Source: Hylemonella gracilis (GTDB lineage: Bacteria > Pseudomonadota > Gammaproteobacteria > Burkholderiales > Burkholderiaceae_C). Taken from it: a stretch of DNA of 64,000 nucleotides. The translations under genes were made by a program, and so were the position numbers. Shown piece by piece: positions 41,380 to 48,921 of this stretch. The stretch is taken from the NCBI RefSeq assembly GCF_004328645.1, contig NZ_CP031395.1, forward strand, positions 893,501 through 957,500, written 5' to 3'. Under the pieces are notes generated by a model that saw only the letters and a list, made by a program, of their open reading frames with translations, searched no databases and had not been told where the DNA came from. Each line of letters starts with the position of its first letter. Position 1 is the stretch's first letter.

Positions 41380-41667
41380 ATGCAAAGCAAGACCTTCACC
41401 AGCGGCCGTTTTCGCCGCGCCGATTACGACGAAACCACCCAGCAGCTGGACCTGCACCGCGACGACAAGACGGTGCTGGCTTACAAGCAGGTGCCGCTGG
41501 AAGTGTTTCGCCGGCTCTGCAGCGCGCCCAATCCGACCACGTATTGGGAGGATCGGATTGCGGAGGAATATCCGAAGGGGGTGGCGATGGGCAAGAGTGA
41601 CGGCAAGGGAGGTAGCGGCGAGGAATCGGAAGCGGCGCAGAAACTCAGAGGGTTGTTTGGGGAGTAA
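41380..41667 (+). CDS. Small KTSC-domain protein
   Basis: This 95-residue protein fits the KTSC domain pattern: a short beta-rich unit with YDETTQQLDLHRDDKTVLAYKQVPLEVFRRL, then a conserved YW/RI..YP end (quoted in part). KTSC domains occur alone or on larger proteins, with unknown function. A Gly/Ser/Glu-rich tail follows residue 70. Its stop codon lies inside an inverted repeat that precedes the restriction gene. Whether it belongs to the defence unit is unclear. Confidence 0.7.
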   Translation: MQSKTFTSGRFRRADYDETTQQLDLHRDDKTVLAYKQVPLEVFRRLCSAPNPTTYWEDRIAEEYPKGVAMGKSDGKGGSGEESEAAQKLRGLFGE

Positions 41668-41757: not shown

Positions 41758-44700
41758 GTGTCGTCAGAATTCTTCAAAAAGCCCATCCTCAACTCGCCAT
41801 ACGCCTATCCTGGGCGGCATTGGGAGTTGGACCCCAGTGGGCAACCTACCCAGCGCATCAAGGATTCCCGGCGTCGGGCTGAGTTCATCACCCCCATTCC
41901 CAAGCCCAAAAAGCTGAAGGGCCAGGTCCAGCAGACCGAACTTGGGCTGGGCAGCAACGTTTCGGACGAGAACCAGCAATACCACTCGGCAATCATCAAC
42001 GGCGTGCGAGCCGAAGTGGACAAATGGCGCGCCATTCCTAATCCCGCCGATTGGGGCGTGACGCCCGAAACCGCCCGTTTGCTTCAGCACTGGCGTAGCC
42101 ATCCTTTCAGCGGGGTGCGGCCTTTTTTCTGCCAGGTGGAGGCGGTGGAAACCGCGATTTGGCTGACCGAAGTTGCGCCCAACCGGGGCAAGGTGGGGCA
42201 GACCTTTCTGGATCACCTGCAAAGCGCCAACGACGACGCCAACCCTGGCTTGATGCGGCTGGCGCTCAAGCTGGCCACGGGTGCCGGCAAGACCACGGTC
42301 ATGGCCATGCTCATCGCCTGGCAGACCATCAACGCCGTGCGGCGCCCCACCAGCAAGAAGTTCACACGCGGCTTCCTGGTGGTGGCTCCCGGCCTCACCA
42401 TCAAGGACCGGCTGCAGGTACTGCAGCCGCATGACCCCAACAGCTACTACGCCAGCCGCGAACTCGTGCCCAGTGACATGATGACCGACCTGGGCAAAGC
42501 CAAGATCGTCATCACCAACTACCACGCCTTCAAGCTGCGCGAGCGCATGGAGCTGTCCAAGGGCGGGCGCCTGCTGTTGCAAGGTCGGGGTGGTGAAGAG
42601 CTCAACACGCTGGAGACCGAAGGCCAGATGCTGCAACGTGTCATGCCTGAACTCATGGGCTTGTCCAGCGTCATGGTCATCAACGACGAGGCCCACCACT
42701 GCTACCGCGAAAAGCCCAAGGCGGAAACCACCGAGACAGACGACGAACTTTCAGGCGACGAAAAGAAAGAAGCTGAGGAGAACAACGAAGCCGCTCGCCT
42801 GTGGATCTCTGGCCTGGAGGCCGTGAACCGCAAGCTGAGCGTCACGCGCGTCATGGACCTCTCGGCCACGCCCTTTTTTCTGCGCGGCTCGGGTTATGTG
42901 GAAGGTACCCTCTTCCCTTGGACCATGAGCGACTTCTCCCTCATGGATGCCATCGAATGCGGCATCGTCAAGCTTCCCCGTGTGCCTGTCGCCGACAACC
43001 TGCCCGGTGCCAGCAAGGATGATCTGCCGGTGTTCCGTAATCTATGGGAAAACATCCGCAAGGACATGCCCAAGAAGGGCAGGGGCAAGTCCGAGGGGCT
43101 GGACCCGCTCAAGTTGCCCACCCGCCTGCAGACCGCGCTGGAAGCTCTGTACGGCCACTACCAGCTGACTTACGAGTTGTGGCGCAAGGCGGGCATCACC
43201 GTGCCCCCTTGCTTCATCGTGGTGTGCAACAACACGTCCACATCCAAGCTGGTCTACGACTACATCTCTGGCTTTCAGCGCCAGAACGCCGACGGCACCC
43301 CCACTGTGGTCAACGGTCGCTTGAGCCTGTTCCGCAACTTTGACGATGCGAACCAGCCGCTGCCGCGCCCGCGCACCCTGCTGATCGACAGCGAACAGCT
43401 GGAATCCGGCGAGGCCTTGGACGACAACTTCCGCGCGATGGCGGGGCCGGAGATTGAGCAGTTTCGTCATGAAATCCTGGAGCGTGGCGGCAAACTGGCC
43501 GATGAGTTGAAGAGTGGCAAGGAGCTGGACGACGCGGCCATCCTCCGCGAAGTGATGAACACCGTGGGCAAGCCCGGCAGGCTCGGTGAATCCATCCGCT
43601 GCGTGGTCTCCGTCTCCATGCTCACCGAAGGGTGGGACACCAACACCGTGACTCACGTCTTGGGCGTGCGCGCCTTCGGTACCCAGTTGCTGTGTGAGCA
43701 GGTGATTGGTCGTGCCTTGCGCCGCCAGTCTTACGACCTCAATGACGAGGGGCTGTTCAACGTCGAATACGCCGACGTGCTCGGCATTCCCTTCAATTTC
43801 AATGCCGAGCCGGTCGTCGCCCCGCCGCAACCGCCACGCGACACGGTACAGGTCAAGGCCGTCAAACCCGATCGGGACCATCTGGAAATCCGATTCCCTC
43901 GCGTAGAAGGCTACCGGGTGGAGTTGCCCGAAGAGCGCATCACCGCGCATTTCACGGAAGATTCGACGCTTAGGCTCACGCCTGAACTGGTGGGGCCGTC
44001 CCGCACACACAACGCCGGCATCATCGGTGAAGGTGTTGATCTTGACTTGAAGCATCTGGGGGACATGCGGCAGCCCACGCTGCTCATGCACCTCACCAAG
44101 CATCTGCTCAGCACCCAGTACCGCGACCCCAATGGTGAGTTGAAGCTACACCTCTTCGGTCAACTCAAGCGCATTGCCAAGGACTGGCTGGACCAGCACC
44201 TGATCTGCCTTGGCAATACCTTCCCAGCCCAGCTGATGTACTTACAGCTGGCCGATATGGCCTGCGAGAAGATCACCGCAGCCATCAATCGGGCGCACAT
44301 CGAAGCGGGCGAAAGCTACATTCGCGCCCTGCTTGACCCGTACAACCCGGTGGGCACGACCCGGTATGTGAACTTCAACACCTCCAAGACGACGCGCTGG
44401 GACACGAGCGGGATGTCGGTGGGCGGCCCCAAGTGCCACCTCAACTGGATCATCACCGACAGCGACTGGGAGGCTGAGTTCTGCCGTGTCGCCGAGGCTC
44501 ATCCCCAAGTGCTGGCCTATGTGAAGAACCACAACCTTGGTTTTGAAGTGCCCTACCTCATGGCGGGCGAGGCGCGCCGTTACCGGCCGGATTTCATCTT
44601 GCGTGTGGACGATGGCCATGGGCCGGACAAGCCGCTGAACCTCATCGTCGAAATCAAGGGCTACCGGGGCGAAGACGCGAAGGTCAAGAAAGAGACGATG

Positions 44701-44865
44701 CAGGTGTATTGGCTGCCCGGCGTCAATGCCCTGGGCACCCACGGCCGGTGGGCCTTTGCCGAATTCAGCGAGGTCTATGCCATGCAGGACGACTTTGCCC
44801 AGGAGATGGCGAGGGCCTTTGATCAGCTGGTTGAAAACAGCATCACCGCAAGGGAGGCGATATGA
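41758..44865 (+). CDS. Type III-like restriction subunit (DEAD/DEAH helicase with C-terminal nuclease)
   Basis: The 1035-residue protein is a Res subunit. It has helicase motif I ATGAGKTT (173-180), motif II NDEAHH (309-314), DLSATP (367-372) and motif VI EQVIGRALRR (about 646-655). Near the C-terminus, RYRPDF (about 941) and IVEIKGY (about 963) give a PD-(D/E)XK nuclease. It would track along and cut DNA when unmethylated sites are met, working with Mod. Start is GTG with AAGGGAG at 41741-41747. It is the first gene of a res-NYN-mod set; classical Type III systems have mod first. It resembles the group named after a Bordetella petrii restriction endonuclease. Confidence 0.9.
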   Translation: MSSEFFKKPILNSPYAYPGRHWELDPSGQPTQRIKDSRRRAEFITPIPKPKKLKGQVQQTELGLGSNVSDENQQYHSAIINGVRAEVDKWRAIPNPADWGVTPETARLLQHWRSHPFSGVRPFFCQVEAVETAIWLTEVAPNRGKVGQTFLDHLQSANDDANPGLMRLALKLATGAGKTTVMAMLIAWQTINAVRRPTSKKFTRGFLVVAPGLTIKDRLQVLQPHDPNSYYASRELVPSDMMTDLGKAKIVITNYHAFKLRERMELSKGGRLLLQGRGGEELNTLETEGQMLQRVMPELMGLSSVMVINDEAHHCYREKPKAETTETDDELSGDEKKEAEENNEAARLWISGLEAVNRKLSVTRVMDLSATPFFLRGSGYVEGTLFPWTMSDFSLMDAIECGIVKLPRVPVADNLPGASKDDLPVFRNLWENIRKDMPKKGRGKSEGLDPLKLPTRLQTALEALYGHYQLTYELWRKAGITVPPCFIVVCNNTSTSKLVYDYISGFQRQNADGTPTVVNGRLSLFRNFDDANQPLPRPRTLLIDSEQLESGEALDDNFRAMAGPEIEQFRHEILERGGKLADELKSGKELDDAAILREVMNTVGKPGRLGESIRCVVSVSMLTEGWDTNTVTHVLGVRAFGTQLLCEQVIGRALRRQSYDLNDEGLFNVEYADVLGIPFNFNAEPVVAPPQPPRDTVQVKAVKPDRDHLEIRFPRVEGYRVELPEERITAHFTEDSTLRLTPELVGPSRTHNAGIIGEGVDLDLKHLGDMRQPTLLMHLTKHLLSTQYRDPNGELKLHLFGQLKRIAKDWLDQHLICLGNTFPAQLMYLQLADMACEKITAAINRAHIEAGESYIRALLDPYNPVGTTRYVNFNTSKTTRWDTSGMSVGGPKCHLNWIITDSDWEAEFCRVAEAHPQVLAYVKNHNLGFEVPYLMAGEARRYRPDFILRVDDGHGPDKPLNLIVEIKGYRGEDAKVKKETMQVYWLPGVNALGTHGRWAFAEFSEVYAMQDDFAQEMARAFDQLVENSITAREAI

Positions 44866-44900
44866 GAACACTATTGGCGATGGCAGCAACTGCGCCGTTG

Positions 44901-44930
44901 AACCATTTTGTTGACGGCAACAAAATGGTT
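44901..44930. promoter_or_regulatory. 30-bp perfect hairpin between res and the NYN gene
   Basis: AACCATTTTGTTG (44901-44913) and CAACAAAATGGTT (44918-44930) form a 13-bp perfect stem with an ACGG loop. It lies 36 bases after the res stop. There is no T run, so it may be an operator or RNA processing/stability signal rather than a terminator. Confidence 0.65.
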
Positions 44931-44963
44931 AGCTGTCATCTTTGTGCCGTATGGGGATGGATT

Positions 44964-44972
44964 TGCTATACT
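44964..44972 (+). promoter_or_regulatory. Possible extended -10 promoter for the NYN and mod genes
   Basis: TGCTATACT is a good extended -10 (TGn plus TATACT), about 105 bases before the NYN start and 33 bases after the 30-bp hairpin. A weak TTGTGC at 44942-44947 could serve as -35 (19-base spacing). It suggests that NYN and mod can be expressed apart from res. Confidence 0.45.
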
Positions 44973-45076
44973 GCGCAGCACATCCGCCCCTTGGCAGTAA
45001 GCCCTCTCACCTATCCTGAGAGTGTGCCGAACCCCTGGGGCTGTTTCATTTCTGGCCTTAGCCGCGCGAGGCCGGT

Positions 45077-45928
45077 ATGAGCTCCGGCCAGATTGCCATA
45101 CTGATCGATGGTGGCTTCTTCCTCAAACGCCTGAGCAGGCTGGTCGAGGCTGGCCAGTGTGACACGCCAGATCAAATCGCGCGCTGCGTACGCAAGCTTT
45201 GCTTCAACCACATCATGCGGCTGAAGGGGGGCAGCGGAAAGCTGTGGCAGCAGCATTTGTATCGCTGCTTCTTCTACGATGCCCAGCCCTATGACGGTAA
45301 GGCGCATCATCCCGTTTCGAATAAGTCCATCGACTTTGCCAAGTCGGATGTGGCTCAGCAGAGGCATTCATTGTTCGATCAGTTGCGCAAGGAGCGCAAG
45401 GTCGCGTTGCGTTTGGGCAAAGTCAATCGAGACCACGACTGGACGCTGTCGCCGCGTCTGACCAAATCCATCCTCAAGACCCGTCAAGCTCTCGCACCTT
45501 TGCAAGCTCTGCAGCAGCAACTGCCCGCAGGGGCGAACCCCCAAGCTGTTCAGCTTCAGCTCAGTGCCGCCGAGGCTCAACAGCTCCTGCAGACGTACAA
45601 CTTCTGGCAGGGCATTCAGGCGGGTGACGTGAGCCTAGGGCTGCGTCAGAAGGGCGTGGATATGCGCATCGCCATTGACATCGCCAGCCTGACCTTAAAA
45701 AAGCAGGTCAGCACCATCATCCTTGTTGCGGGTGACAGCGACTTTGTGCCCGCCGCCAAGTTGGCGCGCAGGGAAGGTATGGAGTTCATCCTTGATCCGT
45801 TGTGGCAGAACATCAACGACGATCTATTCGAGCACATTGATGGATTGCAGTCAGGCTTCAAACGCCCCGGGACAGAACAAGCGACAGCTCCCCTGCCCCA
45901 GGCAGTGCCTGACCAGCCTGCAACTTAG
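45077..45928 (+). CDS. NYN domain (PIN-like) putative ribonuclease within the restriction-modification locus
   Basis: This 283-residue protein has the NYN/LabA-type nuclease layout: IAILIDGGFF with D11, KGVDMRIAIDIASL with D195 and D201, and VAGDSDFVPAAKLARREGM with D220 and D222. These acidic residues form the metal site of PIN-like RNases. A Gln/Ala-rich helical insert (about 135-185) interrupts the domain. It is encoded between res and mod. GAGG five bases before the ATG lies within a small GGCCT/AGGCC hairpin (45054-45073), which may lower translation. Base composition is more even than in the neighbouring mod gene. A defence or toxin-like role is inferred from location only. Confidence 0.87.
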   Translation: MSSGQIAILIDGGFFLKRLSRLVEAGQCDTPDQIARCVRKLCFNHIMRLKGGSGKLWQQHLYRCFFYDAQPYDGKAHHPVSNKSIDFAKSDVAQQRHSLFDQLRKERKVALRLGKVNRDHDWTLSPRLTKSILKTRQALAPLQALQQQLPAGANPQAVQLQLSAAEAQQLLQTYNFWQGIQAGDVSLGLRQKGVDMRIAIDIASLTLKKQVSTIILVAGDSDFVPAAKLARREGMEFILDPLWQNINDDLFEHIDGLQSGFKRPGTEQATAPLPQAVPDQPAT

Positions 45929-45978
45929 TTAACGGAATGCTGTCCACCTTTATCGGCAAAGGCTTTTAGTCAAAGAAC

Positions 45979-48921
45979 ATGGCCACCCGCAAACCCAAAG
46001 CCCCGCTTCAGGTCGAATCCCTCAAGCACGACGACGCCACGCGCAAGAACATTCCCACGGCGGAATACCAGAGCATCCTGCGCGACGAGGACAAGGCCCC
46101 CATCCGCGTGGCCTACGAGCGCCGCAACCAGGACCTGGACCCGCAACTCGTCTGGCGCGGCAAGGACGTGCAGGACTGGAGCGATCTGGTCGTCCACGCT
46201 CCGCCGCTCTACATCCAGGAAAAAGTCCACCCCAAGGTGCTGATCGACGACCTGAAGCGCCAGACCGAGGCCGCCCAGACCGCAGCCGCCACCCAGCAGC
46301 CGGGGTTTGTGGCGGATTTGTTTGCCGACTTCAACGGCCTGCCCAGCAATGAGGCCAAGACCGAGTTCTACCAGCACGATGCCCACTGGGCCAACCGCAT
46401 GATCCTGGGCGACAGCCTGGCCGTCATGGGCAGCCTGGCCGAGCGCGAGGGCCTGCGCGGCAAGGTGCAGTGCATCTACTTCGACCCGCCCTACGGCATC
46501 AAATTCAACAGCAACTTCCAGTGGAGCACCACCAGCCGCGACGTGAAAGACGGCAACGCCGGGCACATCACCCGCGAGCCCGAACAGGTCAAAGCCTTTC
46601 GCGACACCTGGCGTGACGGCATCCATTCCTACTTGACCTATCTGCGTGATCGCCTGACCGTGGCACGCGATCTGTTGACCGAGAGTGGCTCGATCTTTGT
46701 GCAGATCGGGGATGAGAACGTGCACCGGGTGCGGTCTGTGATGGATGAGGTGTTTGGGGATGAGAACCTTGTCACCCAAATTGCTTTTAGGACTACAACG
46801 GGACGTGCGAGCGATAGTTTGGCCGCGGCCTCTAACTATCTTCTGTGGTACGCAAAAAAGCGTACCGTCATGAAATATCGACCGCTATTTCAAGATAAAT
46901 CTGCAGGCTCATCTACTGATCAGGTTTATTCATTGATTCGCTTCGACGATGGAAGAAGTCAGAGAATGACGCCGGATCAAAGAAATGGAAATGAGTCTTT
47001 GCCAGAGGGCGCTCGCCAATTTCGACCCGACAACATTACTAGCTCGCGTCCTGCCGGCGAGAGCGATGTGCGGGAGTTCTATTTTCAAGGCCGAACGTAC
47101 ACGCCAGGCAAAGGTACTTTTAAATCAGACATGCTCGGTCTGAATAGACTTGCAAAGTCCTTGCGTTTATGGCCGACGGTGGGAAGTACGGTTCAATACA
47201 TACGATATCTAAACGATTTTCCCGTAATTCCGTTTTCGAACATATGGACTGATACAGGAACCGGATCGTTCACAGAAGATAAGGTTTACGTAGTTCAGAC
47301 AGGGTCAAAGGTTATAGAGCGCTGCATGCTGATGGTCACAGACCCCGGCGACCTCGTACTCGACCCGACCTGCGGAAGCGGAACGAGCGCCTACGTAGCC
47401 GAACAATGGGGTCGTCGCTGGATCACCATTGACACCTCGCGTGTTGCTCTGGCCTTGGCCCGGGCGCGCATCATGGGTGCGCGTTATCCCTATTACCTGC
47501 TGGCGGATAGCCCGGAGGGACAACTGAAAGAAGCCGAGGTCACACGCAGCGCGTTGTCTTCCCGCGTCACGCGCGGCAACATCGCCCACGGTTTTGTCTA
47601 CGAGCGGGTGCCTCACATCATGCTCAGTTCGATCACGAAGAACGCTGAGGTAGACGTGATCTGGGAAAAGTTCCATGCGGTTCTGGAACCACTGCGCGTG
47701 AAGCTCAACGAGTTGGCCGAGCAGCAATGGCAGGAATGGGACGTGCCGCGCGACATCGAGCCGCACATTCCTTCTTGGCTGATCAGCGGCTTTCAACAGC
47801 GGGTCACGACGACACCTGTAGACCGCAATGCACGCGTGCAAGAAATCCGGAAGCTGCACGCCGACTGGTGGGCACAGCGCATCGCCCGGCAAAAGGAAAT
47901 CGACGCTTCCATTGCCGCGAAGGCCGAGTTCGAGTTTCTCTACGACAAGCCGTACGAGGACAAGAAGAAGGTGCGCGTGGCCGGCCCCTTCACCGTGGAA
48001 AGCCTCTCGCCCCATCGCACACTGGGCGTGGACGAAAACGGCGATGTGATGGACGGCAACAAGGCCGCCGAACCCGAAGCCGGCTACGGCGGCACCAGCG
48101 TGCGTGATTTCGCCGCCATCATCCTGGAAAACCTGCGCACGGCGGGTGTGCAGCAGGCGCACAAGCAGGATCGCATCAGCTTCACCTCGCTCACGCCCTG
48201 GCCGGGCAGTTATGTGTGTGGGGAGGGGCGTTATATCGAAGGTCGAGGCGAAGGCGAAAGCGGCGCCGAAAAGCGCGCTGCCATCTTCATCGGCCCCGAG
48301 TTCGGCACCGTCTCGCGGCCTGATCTGGTGAGCGCCGCCAAGGAGGCGGGCGATGCCGGTTTTGACGTGCTGGTGGCCTGCGCCTTCAACTACGACGCGC
48401 ACAGCAGCGAGTTCGAGAAGCTGGGGCGCATTCCTGTGCTGAAAGCGCGCATGAACGCCGATCTGCACATGGCCGAAGACCTCAAGAACACGGGCAAGGG
48501 CAACCTCTTCGTGATCTTTGGCGAGCCGGACATCACCATCCTGGATGCCGCCACCGACCAGCCGCTCAAGGCCGGTGAGCGGGCCACCGGCGAACTGAAA
48601 GTCAAGGTCAACGGCGTGGACGTGTTCGACCCCAGCACGGGCGAAGTGCGCAGCGACGGCGCCGACGGCATCGCCTGCTGGTTCATCGACACCGACTACA
48701 ACGAAGAAAGCTTCTTCGTTCGCCACGCCTACTTCCTCGGCGCCAACGACCCTTACAAATCCCTCAAGACCACGCTCAAGGCTGAAATCAATCAGGAAGC
48801 CTGGGATTCGCTCAACAGCGACGTGTCACGCCCCTTCGACAAGCCGAGCAGCGGTCGCATCGCTGTGAAAGTGATCAACCATTTGGGGGATGAGGTGATG
48901 AAGGTGTTCAGGGTTGCTTAA
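45979..48921 (+). CDS. Type III-like adenine-N6 DNA methyltransferase (Mod), long form
   Basis: The 980-residue protein is a beta-class DNA methyltransferase: catalytic DPPY (about 169-172) comes before the AdoMet-binding DPTCGSGTS (about 462-470), with the target-recognition region between. It would methylate adenines, protecting host DNA from Res. The first 100 residues are hydrophilic, and about 380 residues after the catalytic core form a separate region with FIGPEFGTVSRPDLV, VLKARMNADLHM and FVIFGEPDI, seen in long Mod-like proteins but of unknown role. The recognition region (bases about 46775-47330) is AT-richer than its flanks, suggesting a swapped specificity module. Confidence 0.92.
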   Translation: MATRKPKAPLQVESLKHDDATRKNIPTAEYQSILRDEDKAPIRVAYERRNQDLDPQLVWRGKDVQDWSDLVVHAPPLYIQEKVHPKVLIDDLKRQTEAAQTAAATQQPGFVADLFADFNGLPSNEAKTEFYQHDAHWANRMILGDSLAVMGSLAEREGLRGKVQCIYFDPPYGIKFNSNFQWSTTSRDVKDGNAGHITREPEQVKAFRDTWRDGIHSYLTYLRDRLTVARDLLTESGSIFVQIGDENVHRVRSVMDEVFGDENLVTQIAFRTTTGRASDSLAAASNYLLWYAKKRTVMKYRPLFQDKSAGSSTDQVYSLIRFDDGRSQRMTPDQRNGNESLPEGARQFRPDNITSSRPAGESDVREFYFQGRTYTPGKGTFKSDMLGLNRLAKSLRLWPTVGSTVQYIRYLNDFPVIPFSNIWTDTGTGSFTEDKVYVVQTGSKVIERCMLMVTDPGDLVLDPTCGSGTSAYVAEQWGRRWITIDTSRVALALARARIMGARYPYYLLADSPEGQLKEAEVTRSALSSRVTRGNIAHGFVYERVPHIMLSSITKNAEVDVIWEKFHAVLEPLRVKLNELAEQQWQEWDVPRDIEPHIPSWLISGFQQRVTTTPVDRNARVQEIRKLHADWWAQRIARQKEIDASIAAKAEFEFLYDKPYEDKKKVRVAGPFTVESLSPHRTLGVDENGDVMDGNKAAEPEAGYGGTSVRDFAAIILENLRTAGVQQAHKQDRISFTSLTPWPGSYVCGEGRYIEGRGEGESGAEKRAAIFIGPEFGTVSRPDLVSAAKEAGDAGFDVLVACAFNYDAHSSEFEKLGRIPVLKARMNADLHMAEDLKNTGKGNLFVIFGEPDITILDAATDQPLKAGERATGELKVKVNGVDVFDPSTGEVRSDGADGIACWFIDTDYNEESFFVRHAYFLGANDPYKSLKTTLKAEINQEAWDSLNSDVSRPFDKPSSGRIAVKVINHLGDEVMKVFRVA

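What the first reader, a model, noticed from the sequence alone, without database searches (positions are those of the whole stretch)
41758..48921. Restriction-modification locus with a NYN-domain nuclease between res and mod
The order res-NYN-mod differs from classical mod-res Type III systems. The middle gene encodes a PIN-like nuclease with its acidic residues intact (D11, D195, D201, D220, D222). It could be an RNA-cutting arm acting when DNA restriction fails, or a regulator of the mod transcript. I do not know of a described system with this trio.
Basis: partly seen in the sequence, partly recalled or inferred. Interest (0 to 1): 0.8.

Follow-up and report, generated by a model that had tools for sequence, protein, structure and literature searches.

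The report
RNA-leashed nuclease inside a restriction system
The gene between the restriction and modification genes is an RNA-cutting-type enzyme that comes with its own small folded RNA, and some viruses of bacteria carry that kind of RNA without the enzyme, which suggests a poison-and-antidote defence module with an RNA antidote.

Summary
It precedes the gene in 79 of 80 NYN loci (the 80th contig is cut there), has compensatory changes in 10 of 14 pairs, follows promoter-like signals, matches nothing in Rfam, and goes with NYN, not with the restriction system. RM linkage of NYN changes repeatedly, and the res-mod gap is a cargo slot that elsewhere holds PIN toxin-antitoxin genes. NYN also sits in plasmids and prophages. 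Such RNAs occur without NYN in phages: two Chaseviridae carry an E. coli prophage's RNA at 98% identity where the four relatives opened have a tRNA or tRNA-like gene. Best reading: an RNase toxin restrained by its own small RNA (type III-like toxin-antitoxin), parked between res and mod as guard or addiction module, with phages copying the RNA as counter-defence. Toxicity, binding and neutralisation are inferred. Nine of 21 strong genomic RNA matches lack NYN, so a cis-regulatory role stays open.

The parts
44981..45052 (+). Structured small RNA (short class): closing stem GCCCC/GGGGC plus GG/CC, internal loop with AGUA and GAA strands, inner hairpin, short U-rich tail; proposed RNA antitoxin of NYN
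   Evidence: 79 of 80 NYN loci have it (69 by pattern, 10 read by eye); 10 of 14 pairs with two-sided changes, 97.5% of cells paired, 0 of 500 shuffles as high; no Rfam match at E <= 1, only chance-level ones at E <= 10
44967..44972 (+). TATACT, likely -10 hexamer of the RNA/NYN(/mod) promoter; the window's own -35 is weak
   Evidence: Read from the sequence at the place of the -10 signal in the profile of 61 upstream regions. The strict sigma-70 scan found no promoter here.
45077..45928 (+). NYN (PIN-like) predicted RNase, proposed toxin/effector
41758..44865 (+). res: BPTD_3080 family restriction endonuclease (helicase plus C-terminal nuclease)
   Evidence: NF046055 1333.7 bits; ResIII and a sub-threshold RE_endonuc match
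45979..48921 (+). mod: N6/N4 DNA methyltransferase of type III kind
   Evidence: PF01555; PDLC03632 MTase_III 1429.6 bits
44901..44930 (+). Perfect 13-bp inverted repeat between res and the RNA promoter; role unknown
   Evidence: also between res and the RNA in L004 and L027

Best explanation
The RNA at 44981-45052 and the NYN gene form a self-contained toxin-antitoxin-like module. The RNA is made from its own promoter, mostly ends at its own closing stem and U-rich tail, and so is made in excess over the read-through transcript that carries NYN (and here mod). The folded RNA binds the NYN RNase and keeps it inactive. When a phage shuts down or degrades host RNA, or when the locus is lost, the short-lived RNA runs out and the stable NYN cuts cellular or phage RNA. 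In this genome the module sits in the cargo slot between res and mod, where it would guard the restriction system against loss or inhibition and add an RNA-directed second line. Some phages carry the RNA alone and would use it to block NYN. Shown by sequence: the parts, their conservation, the constant RNA-NYN pairing, repeated gain and loss of RM linkage, and RNA copies in phages without NYN. Inferred: toxicity, RNA-protein binding, neutralisation, trigger, and the guard role.
For: RNA before NYN in 79 of 80 genome loci. Covariation in 10 of 14 pairs, 0 of 500 shuffles as high. Profile of 61 upstream regions: T-T-G preferred at -36 to -34 (35, 30, 25 of 61), T, A..A, T at -14 to -9 (T 47 of 61 at -9), A at -1 (36 of 61), so transcription would start at the RNA's first bases. 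Promoter, RNA, terminator-like end, then RNase gene is the layout of type III TA operons (PMC5086642, passages). Among 36 res loci the RNA model rings only in the 6 with NYN. RNA class (short/long, labelled by me for genome loci only) changes once on the NYN tree, RM state 15 times. NYN in places typical of exclusion genes: in lambda-like ev099 next to the LexA-family repressor, in Streptococcus phage Javan85 between an XRE-type regulator and the integrase. The res-mod slot holds DUF2281 plus PIN in L340 and PIN in L341, UPF0175 plus DUF3368 on plasmid pAQ5. RNA without NYN on viral contigs: L311 (R1 E 2.6e-14 for 0.74 Mb), L136/L152 (E 9e-8), L255 (E 5.4e-10); NYN found in 0 of these 4 records (records may be fragments). 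BSBP01 and 2KOFFS carry the ev099 RNA at 98.4% over 61-62 nt in sequence of their own phage kind and are not among the 15 phage records with a NYN match; at that site four relatives opened have a tRNA or tRNA-like gene (ARAGORN calls one in 2 of 4; the other two by eye). NYN stays open beside res/mod remnants in L019 and L032. Precedent for phage RNA mimics: PhiTE (PMC3475682, passages).
Against: No expression, toxicity or binding data. The RNA is one unit, with no tandem repeats and no pseudoknot shown. Of 21 genomic RNA matches at E <= 1e-6, 11 have NYN next, 1 a decayed NYN and 9 not: DUF3800, DUF433, DUF2281, an IrrE-DUF4411 pair, one unnamed gene (G219) and four that I could not resolve (G186, G332, G394, G408); this fits a regulatory cassette as well. 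The window's own U-run is weak (GGGGCUGUUUC), and the strict scan scored no promoter, and no terminator at the RNA. One phage RNA class (class 4) lacks a U-run. In L112 NYN is decayed with the RNA kept; in E. coli 274 genomes hold the RNA but only 73 match most of RNA plus NYN, and in one O157 genome IS1203 cuts NYN, so NYN is often dispensable. Two of the four phage relatives show no tRNA that ARAGORN accepts.
Confidence: 0.55

Rival explanations
1. The RNA is a cis-acting attenuator or riboswitch-like leader: its closing stem is a terminator, and a signal (metabolite, host factor or NYN itself) decides read-through into NYN and, here, mod. It does not act in trans.
For: Promoter-RNA-U-run-gene layout; much the same RNA stands before DUF3800, DUF433, DUF2281 and IrrE-DUF4411 genes where no NYN follows.
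Against: Phage copies without NYN: in L311 it lies in the gap between a terminase and a DUF4055 gene on the opposite strand; BSBP01 and 2KOFFS hold it where relatives have a tRNA or tRNA-like gene, in front of a small gene without known link to NYN. The short and long RNA classes follow the NYN tree.
Confidence: 0.22
2. RNA and NYN form a ribonucleoprotein effector: the RNA is a positive cofactor or trigger sensor that NYN needs for activity, and phage copies are decoys or triggers.
For: Near-invariant pairing (79 of 80); invariant basic residues R63, R112, K192, R197, K228, R231 in NYN; internal loop AGUA and GA kept in 90% or more of the short class.
Against: No variable guide-like segment in the RNA. 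The layout (RNA first, protein by read-through) fits inhibition better. No direct test.
Confidence: 0.13
3. A PrrC-like arrangement: NYN is held silent by the Res/Mod proteins and released when restriction fails; the RNA is incidental.
For: Recurrent res-NYN-mod order; PrrC inside EcoprrI is a precedent (PMC3710099, passages); NYN also in a helicase-NYN-N6 methylase locus of Thermus and after an SNF2 gene on a Campylobacter plasmid.
Against: 27 of 80 NYN loci with at least 1.5 kb on each side show neither res nor mod yet have the RNA, as do many NYNs on viral contigs (37 of 80 by R1 at E <= 0.01).
Confidence: 0.06
4. NYN trims its own leader: the RNA is only a cleavage site for autoregulation of NYN-mod expression, with no defence role.
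For: RNA and NYN are adjacent and the RNA class follows the NYN tree.
Against: RNA alone in phages; NYN in prophage positions used by exclusion genes.
Confidence: 0.04

Closest known systems
Type III toxin-antitoxin systems (ToxIN, CptIN, TenpIN)
   Same: RNA upstream of an RNase gene behind one promoter, terminator-like end between them; a phage can carry the RNA as a mimic (PMC5086642 and PMC3475682, passages).
   Different: Toxin fold is NYN/PIN-like, the RNA is one unit rather than tandem repeats, no pseudoknot shown; sequence not in Rfam.
AbiF with RNA RCd22 (Clostridioides difficile prophage)
   Same: Prophage-borne toxic protein neutralised by an associated structured RNA acting in cis and in trans (PMC12373285, passages).
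   Different: Abi_2/AbiD/F protein linked to ancestral Cas13, two RNA motifs; not a NYN protein.
DUF3800 RNA motifs (Rfam RF02969 DUF3800-I and others; the 2017 paper of Weinberg is recalled, not held)
   Same: Structured RNAs reported as associated with DUF3800 proteins (PMC10910872, passages); our model R1 also rings before a DUF3800 gene (L083).
   Different: No Rfam DUF3800 model matched the window or L083; RF02969 rang in 0 of 150 genomes, but also in 0 of 14 controls, so that search shows nothing.
EcoprrI-PrrC
   Same: Toxic RNase inside a restriction-modification operon as second line (PMC3710099, passages).
   Different: PrrC is a HEPN nuclease in a type Ic operon held by the RM complex; here a NYN nuclease with its own RNA, often without RM.
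BPTD_3080 family restriction system
   Same: Res meets the NCBIfam equivalog model; res-mod order as in relatives.
   Different: The cargo between res and mod differs from locus to locus; here NYN with its RNA.

Membership tests
Type III toxin-antitoxin (ToxIN/CptIN/TenpIN) | RNA gene directly upstream of the toxin gene, shared promoter, terminator-like end between | tested here: met
   79 of 80 loci, promoter profile, U-run after the closing stem in most aligned sequences; weak in the window itself
Type III toxin-antitoxin (ToxIN/CptIN/TenpIN) | Antitoxin RNA made of tandem repeats | tested here: not met
   No repeat of the unit at 44840-45120
Type III toxin-antitoxin (ToxIN/CptIN/TenpIN) | ToxN-type toxin fold | tested here: not met
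Type III toxin-antitoxin (ToxIN/CptIN/TenpIN) | Pseudoknotted antitoxin | not tested
   Only nested structure was modelled
Type III toxin-antitoxin (ToxIN/CptIN/TenpIN) | RNA neutralises a toxic RNase by direct binding | not testable with these tools
   Needs bench work
NYN (PIN-like) nucleases | Conserved acidic site and PIN-like fold | tested here: met
BPTD_3080 restriction endonuclease (NF046055) | Score above the curated cut-off of 800 bits | tested here: met
   1333.7 bits
Rfam DUF3800 RNAs | Match to an Rfam DUF3800 model | tested here: not met
   None in the window or in L083
PrrC-like RM-embedded anticodon nuclease | HEPN-type RNase | tested here: not met
   NYN by Pfam and by fold
PrrC-like RM-embedded anticodon nuclease | Activity controlled by the RM complex | not testable with these tools
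   NYN occurs without res and mod in 27 of 80 loci, which makes it unlikely as a rule

The most novel reading that the evidence does not exclude
A widespread, undescribed class of RNA-antitoxin defence modules: NYN RNase toxins each leashed by a dedicated small structured RNA (at least four RNA shapes), carried by plasmids, prophages and the res-mod slot of restriction systems, and countered by phages that carry the RNA alone, in two coliphages apparently in exchange for a tRNA gene.
Probability: 0.5. Interest if true: 0.9.

Novelty: new variant of a known kind. Interest (0 to 1): 0.83.

Why it matters
If right, a large family of NYN/LabA-type proteins (7312 of the 8000 candidates scored had E <= 0.001; where a source names the listed ones the names are 'NYN domain-containing' or 'LabA/DUF88') gains a partner, a likely function and a testable switch. 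It gives RNA-antitoxin systems a new toxin fold, shows restriction operons as carriers of exchangeable guard modules, and offers examples of phages that hold a defence system's RNA on its own. The E. coli prophage copy and the Chaseviridae copies make it testable with ordinary laboratory strains.

Tried and rejected
Known riboswitch or Rfam RNA: no match at E <= 1 on 7.9 kb and four chance-level hits at E <= 10 on 117 bases. DUF3800-I RNA in 150 genomes of the order: none, but the controls were silent too, so this shows nothing. RNA belonging to the restriction system: rejected, the model rings only in the 6 of 36 res loci that have NYN. Guide RNA: no variable segment. NYN relatives in the PDB by sequence: one chance-level hit; only 1 Foldseek hit under E 0.001, the fold rests on VIA-align. 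Strict promoter/terminator scan of the window: no promoter, no terminator at the RNA. Crude test for a long stem plus U-run: 60 of 78 genome and 52 of 74 viral NYN leaders against 42 of 337 other ORF leaders; after shuffling 23, 19 and 34. HEC-09 and NYN models of PADLOC match only weakly; the main text of the PADLOC paper holds neither word. blastn of the L136 and L311 RNAs against 50,697 phage records: no match. Literature: searches with NYN, DUF88 or DUF3800 and toxin-antitoxin, restriction, RNA or defence terms (listings) and one on restriction systems with embedded toxin-antitoxin genes (listing) showed no description of this module; passages of two hits were looked at for NYN. The library holds only CC-licensed PMC papers and no preprints.

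Rows dropped: L042 (contig cut inside NYN), L071 (copy of L069) and L080 (odd RNA; rings with R2) were left out of A1/A2. The RNA in 10 of the 79 loci was missed by my regular expression and read by eye in its printout. RNA matches with E > 1e-6 are not among the 21; L124 (G408) could not be read because its locus is cut by the contig end. L311, L136/L152 and L255 come from pattern scans whose other hits were mostly chance: 5 of 79 new loci rang (3 of these are NYN phages already held); of the 25 loci I passed on only the three that looked like the RNA (L136, L151, L152), and all three rang. Of the 45 records only four relatives were opened at the RNA site. The alignment A3 used 78 of the 116 non-redundant NYN sequences plus the window. 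R1 and R2 were built from NYN loci, so they cannot test on those loci whether the RNA is there.

Full report

What was missed. Printing the DNA before each of 80 NYN relatives showed a block of about 65 nt directly in front of the gene. In the window it is 44981-45052, CATCCGCCCCTTGGCAGTAAGCCCTCTCACCTATCCTGAGAGTGTGCCGAACCCCTGGGGC followed by a short U-rich tail. It is present in 79 of 80 loci; the 80th contig is cut inside NYN. A short class (61 sequences, window included) and a long class (17) were aligned. On the short class 10 of 14 pairs show changes on both sides and 97.5% of cells pair; none of 500 shuffles and no slid version comes near. In the long class 12 of 22 predicted pairs have two-sided changes. 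Upstream, the 61 sequences share -35-like and -10-like signals at fixed distance, so the RNA would start the transcript; the window's own -35 is poor and a strict scan misses it. Rfam has no such family.

The RNA belongs to NYN, not to the restriction system. In a census with NF046055, 35 of 398 genomes matched at E <= 1e-30, 27 above the cut-off. Of 30 loci read, some of them fragments, 6 have NYN beside res: the window, four more with res-NYN-mod (L335, L336, L337, L356) and L353 with NYN before res. Among 36 res loci (these 30 plus 6 from plasmids) the RNA model rings in exactly those 6. Other loci have res followed directly by mod (L333, L342, L347), DUF2281 plus PIN (L340; PIN also in L341), single other genes, or on a cyanobacterial plasmid UPF0175 plus DUF3368. 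On the NYN tree the RM label changes 15 times (at least 10 forced), the RNA class once. Of the 80 NYN loci, 24 have near-full res and mod, 12 both in part, 7 one, 27 neither with at least 1.5 kb on each side, 8 lie too near an end and 2 were not placed. In L019 and L032 res and mod are remnants but NYN is open; in L112 NYN is decayed while the RNA is intact.

A mobile defence-like module. NYN relatives lie on plasmids (162 records, 134 of them Campylobacter) and in phages (15 records; the best 80 of 90 viral contigs). In the lambda-like phage ev099 NYN follows the LexA-family repressor gene, the place where lambda has rexAB (recalled). In Streptococcus phage Javan85 it lies between an XRE-type regulator and the integrase. 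Model R1 at E <= 0.01 rings in front of NYN in 37 of the 80 viral loci, and two further RNA shapes occur, with 7 of 17 and 3 of 12 pairs covarying in 7 distinct sequences each.

RNA without NYN in phages. Pattern scans followed by R1 gave L311, where the RNA lies on the opposite strand between a terminase and a DUF4055 gene (E 2.6e-14); L136/L152, near a terminase-like gene (sub-threshold Terminase_3) and with its own following hairpin (E 9e-8); and L255, a sequence also found in genome G219 as L085 (E 5.4e-10). None of the four records has a NYN match, though records may be fragments and the search had no positive control. Searching with the ev099 RNA found two Chaseviridae phages, BSBP01 and 2KOFFS, with 61-62 nt at 98.4% identity and no NYN. 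Four relatives opened have another RNA gene at that spot: ARAGORN calls a tRNA in L366 (595-689) and L369 (414-505), exactly between the aligned flanks, and none in L367, L368, L363 or L364; L367 and L368 show a similar tRNA-like sequence by eye. The pieces next to it align at 94-100% in L366, L367 and L369; L368 aligns at 84% throughout. The two phages therefore seem to have exchanged a tRNA gene for the RNA. That Chaseviridae are virulent is recalled. The PhiTE pseudo-ToxI story (PMC3475682, passages) is the nearest precedent.

What speaks against. Of 21 genomic RNA matches at E <= 1e-6, 11 have NYN next, 1 a decayed NYN, and 9 other sequence: DUF3800, DUF433, DUF2281 and IrrE-DUF4411 genes, one unnamed gene, and four unresolved. 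Either the RNA also serves other toxin families, or these are leftover or anti-addiction copies, or the RNA is a general regulatory cassette. In E. coli 274 of 5426 genomes hold the ev099-type RNA but only 73 match most of RNA plus NYN; in one O157 genome IS1203 interrupts NYN. No experiment bears on toxicity or binding.

Mechanism. I favour an RNA-leashed RNase: RNA in excess, NYN from read-through, release when the RNA decays. The place between res and mod would make it a guard or addiction module for the restriction system, like the PIN genes found in the same slot. Confidence about 0.55; the cis-attenuator reading gets 0.22.

Relation to the known. [quoted passage not shown] AbiF with RCd22 (PMC12373285, passages) shows that other folds can be restrained in this way. 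PrrC in EcoprrI (PMC3710099, passages) shows an RNase inside a restriction operon. The searches listed in Tried and rejected found no description of a NYN-RNA pair in the library held.

Noticed in passing
window 44901-44930; L004:9155-9180; L027:4361-4386: Perfect 13-bp inverted repeat AACCATTTTGTTG-ACGG-CAACAAAATGGTT between res and the RNA, the only copy in the own genome, and also between res and the RNA in a Hydrogenophaga MAG and a Verrucomicrobiales MAG.
   Followed up: partly
window 41380-41667: Small KTSC-domain gene (PF13619) just upstream of res; no match to it in the 80 NYN loci at E <= 1e-6.
   Followed up: no
L083:871-1573: Next to the RNA before a DUF3800 gene there is an array of spaced repeats weakly matching a CRISPR repeat model (27.4 bits, gathering score 48).
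   Followed up: no
L340, L341 (L358 and L359 by eye only); L244:8612-9356: The res-mod gap of BPTD_3080 systems is a cargo slot that repeatedly holds PIN-type toxin or toxin-antitoxin genes.
   Followed up: partly
L363 about 2501-2562; L364:3-63; L366:595-689; L369:414-505: A tRNA locus near the spanin genes of Chaseviridae phages seems to be swapped for the NYN-type RNA in BSBP01 and 2KOFFS.
   Followed up: yes
L117:1501-2930; L084:1501-1838: The RNA also stands before an IrrE-like/DUF4411 gene pair (L117) and before a DUF433 gene (L084).
   Followed up: partly
L365:2501-4198: In E. coli O157:H7 TW14359 the prophage NYN is shortened by an IS1203 insertion while the RNA is intact.
   Followed up: no
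window 44996-44999 with 45029-45031: The RNA's internal loop has AGUA and GAA strands, like the bulged-G (loop E) motif of the ribosomal sarcin-ricin loop (motif recalled); it could mimic the target of NYN.
   Followed up: no
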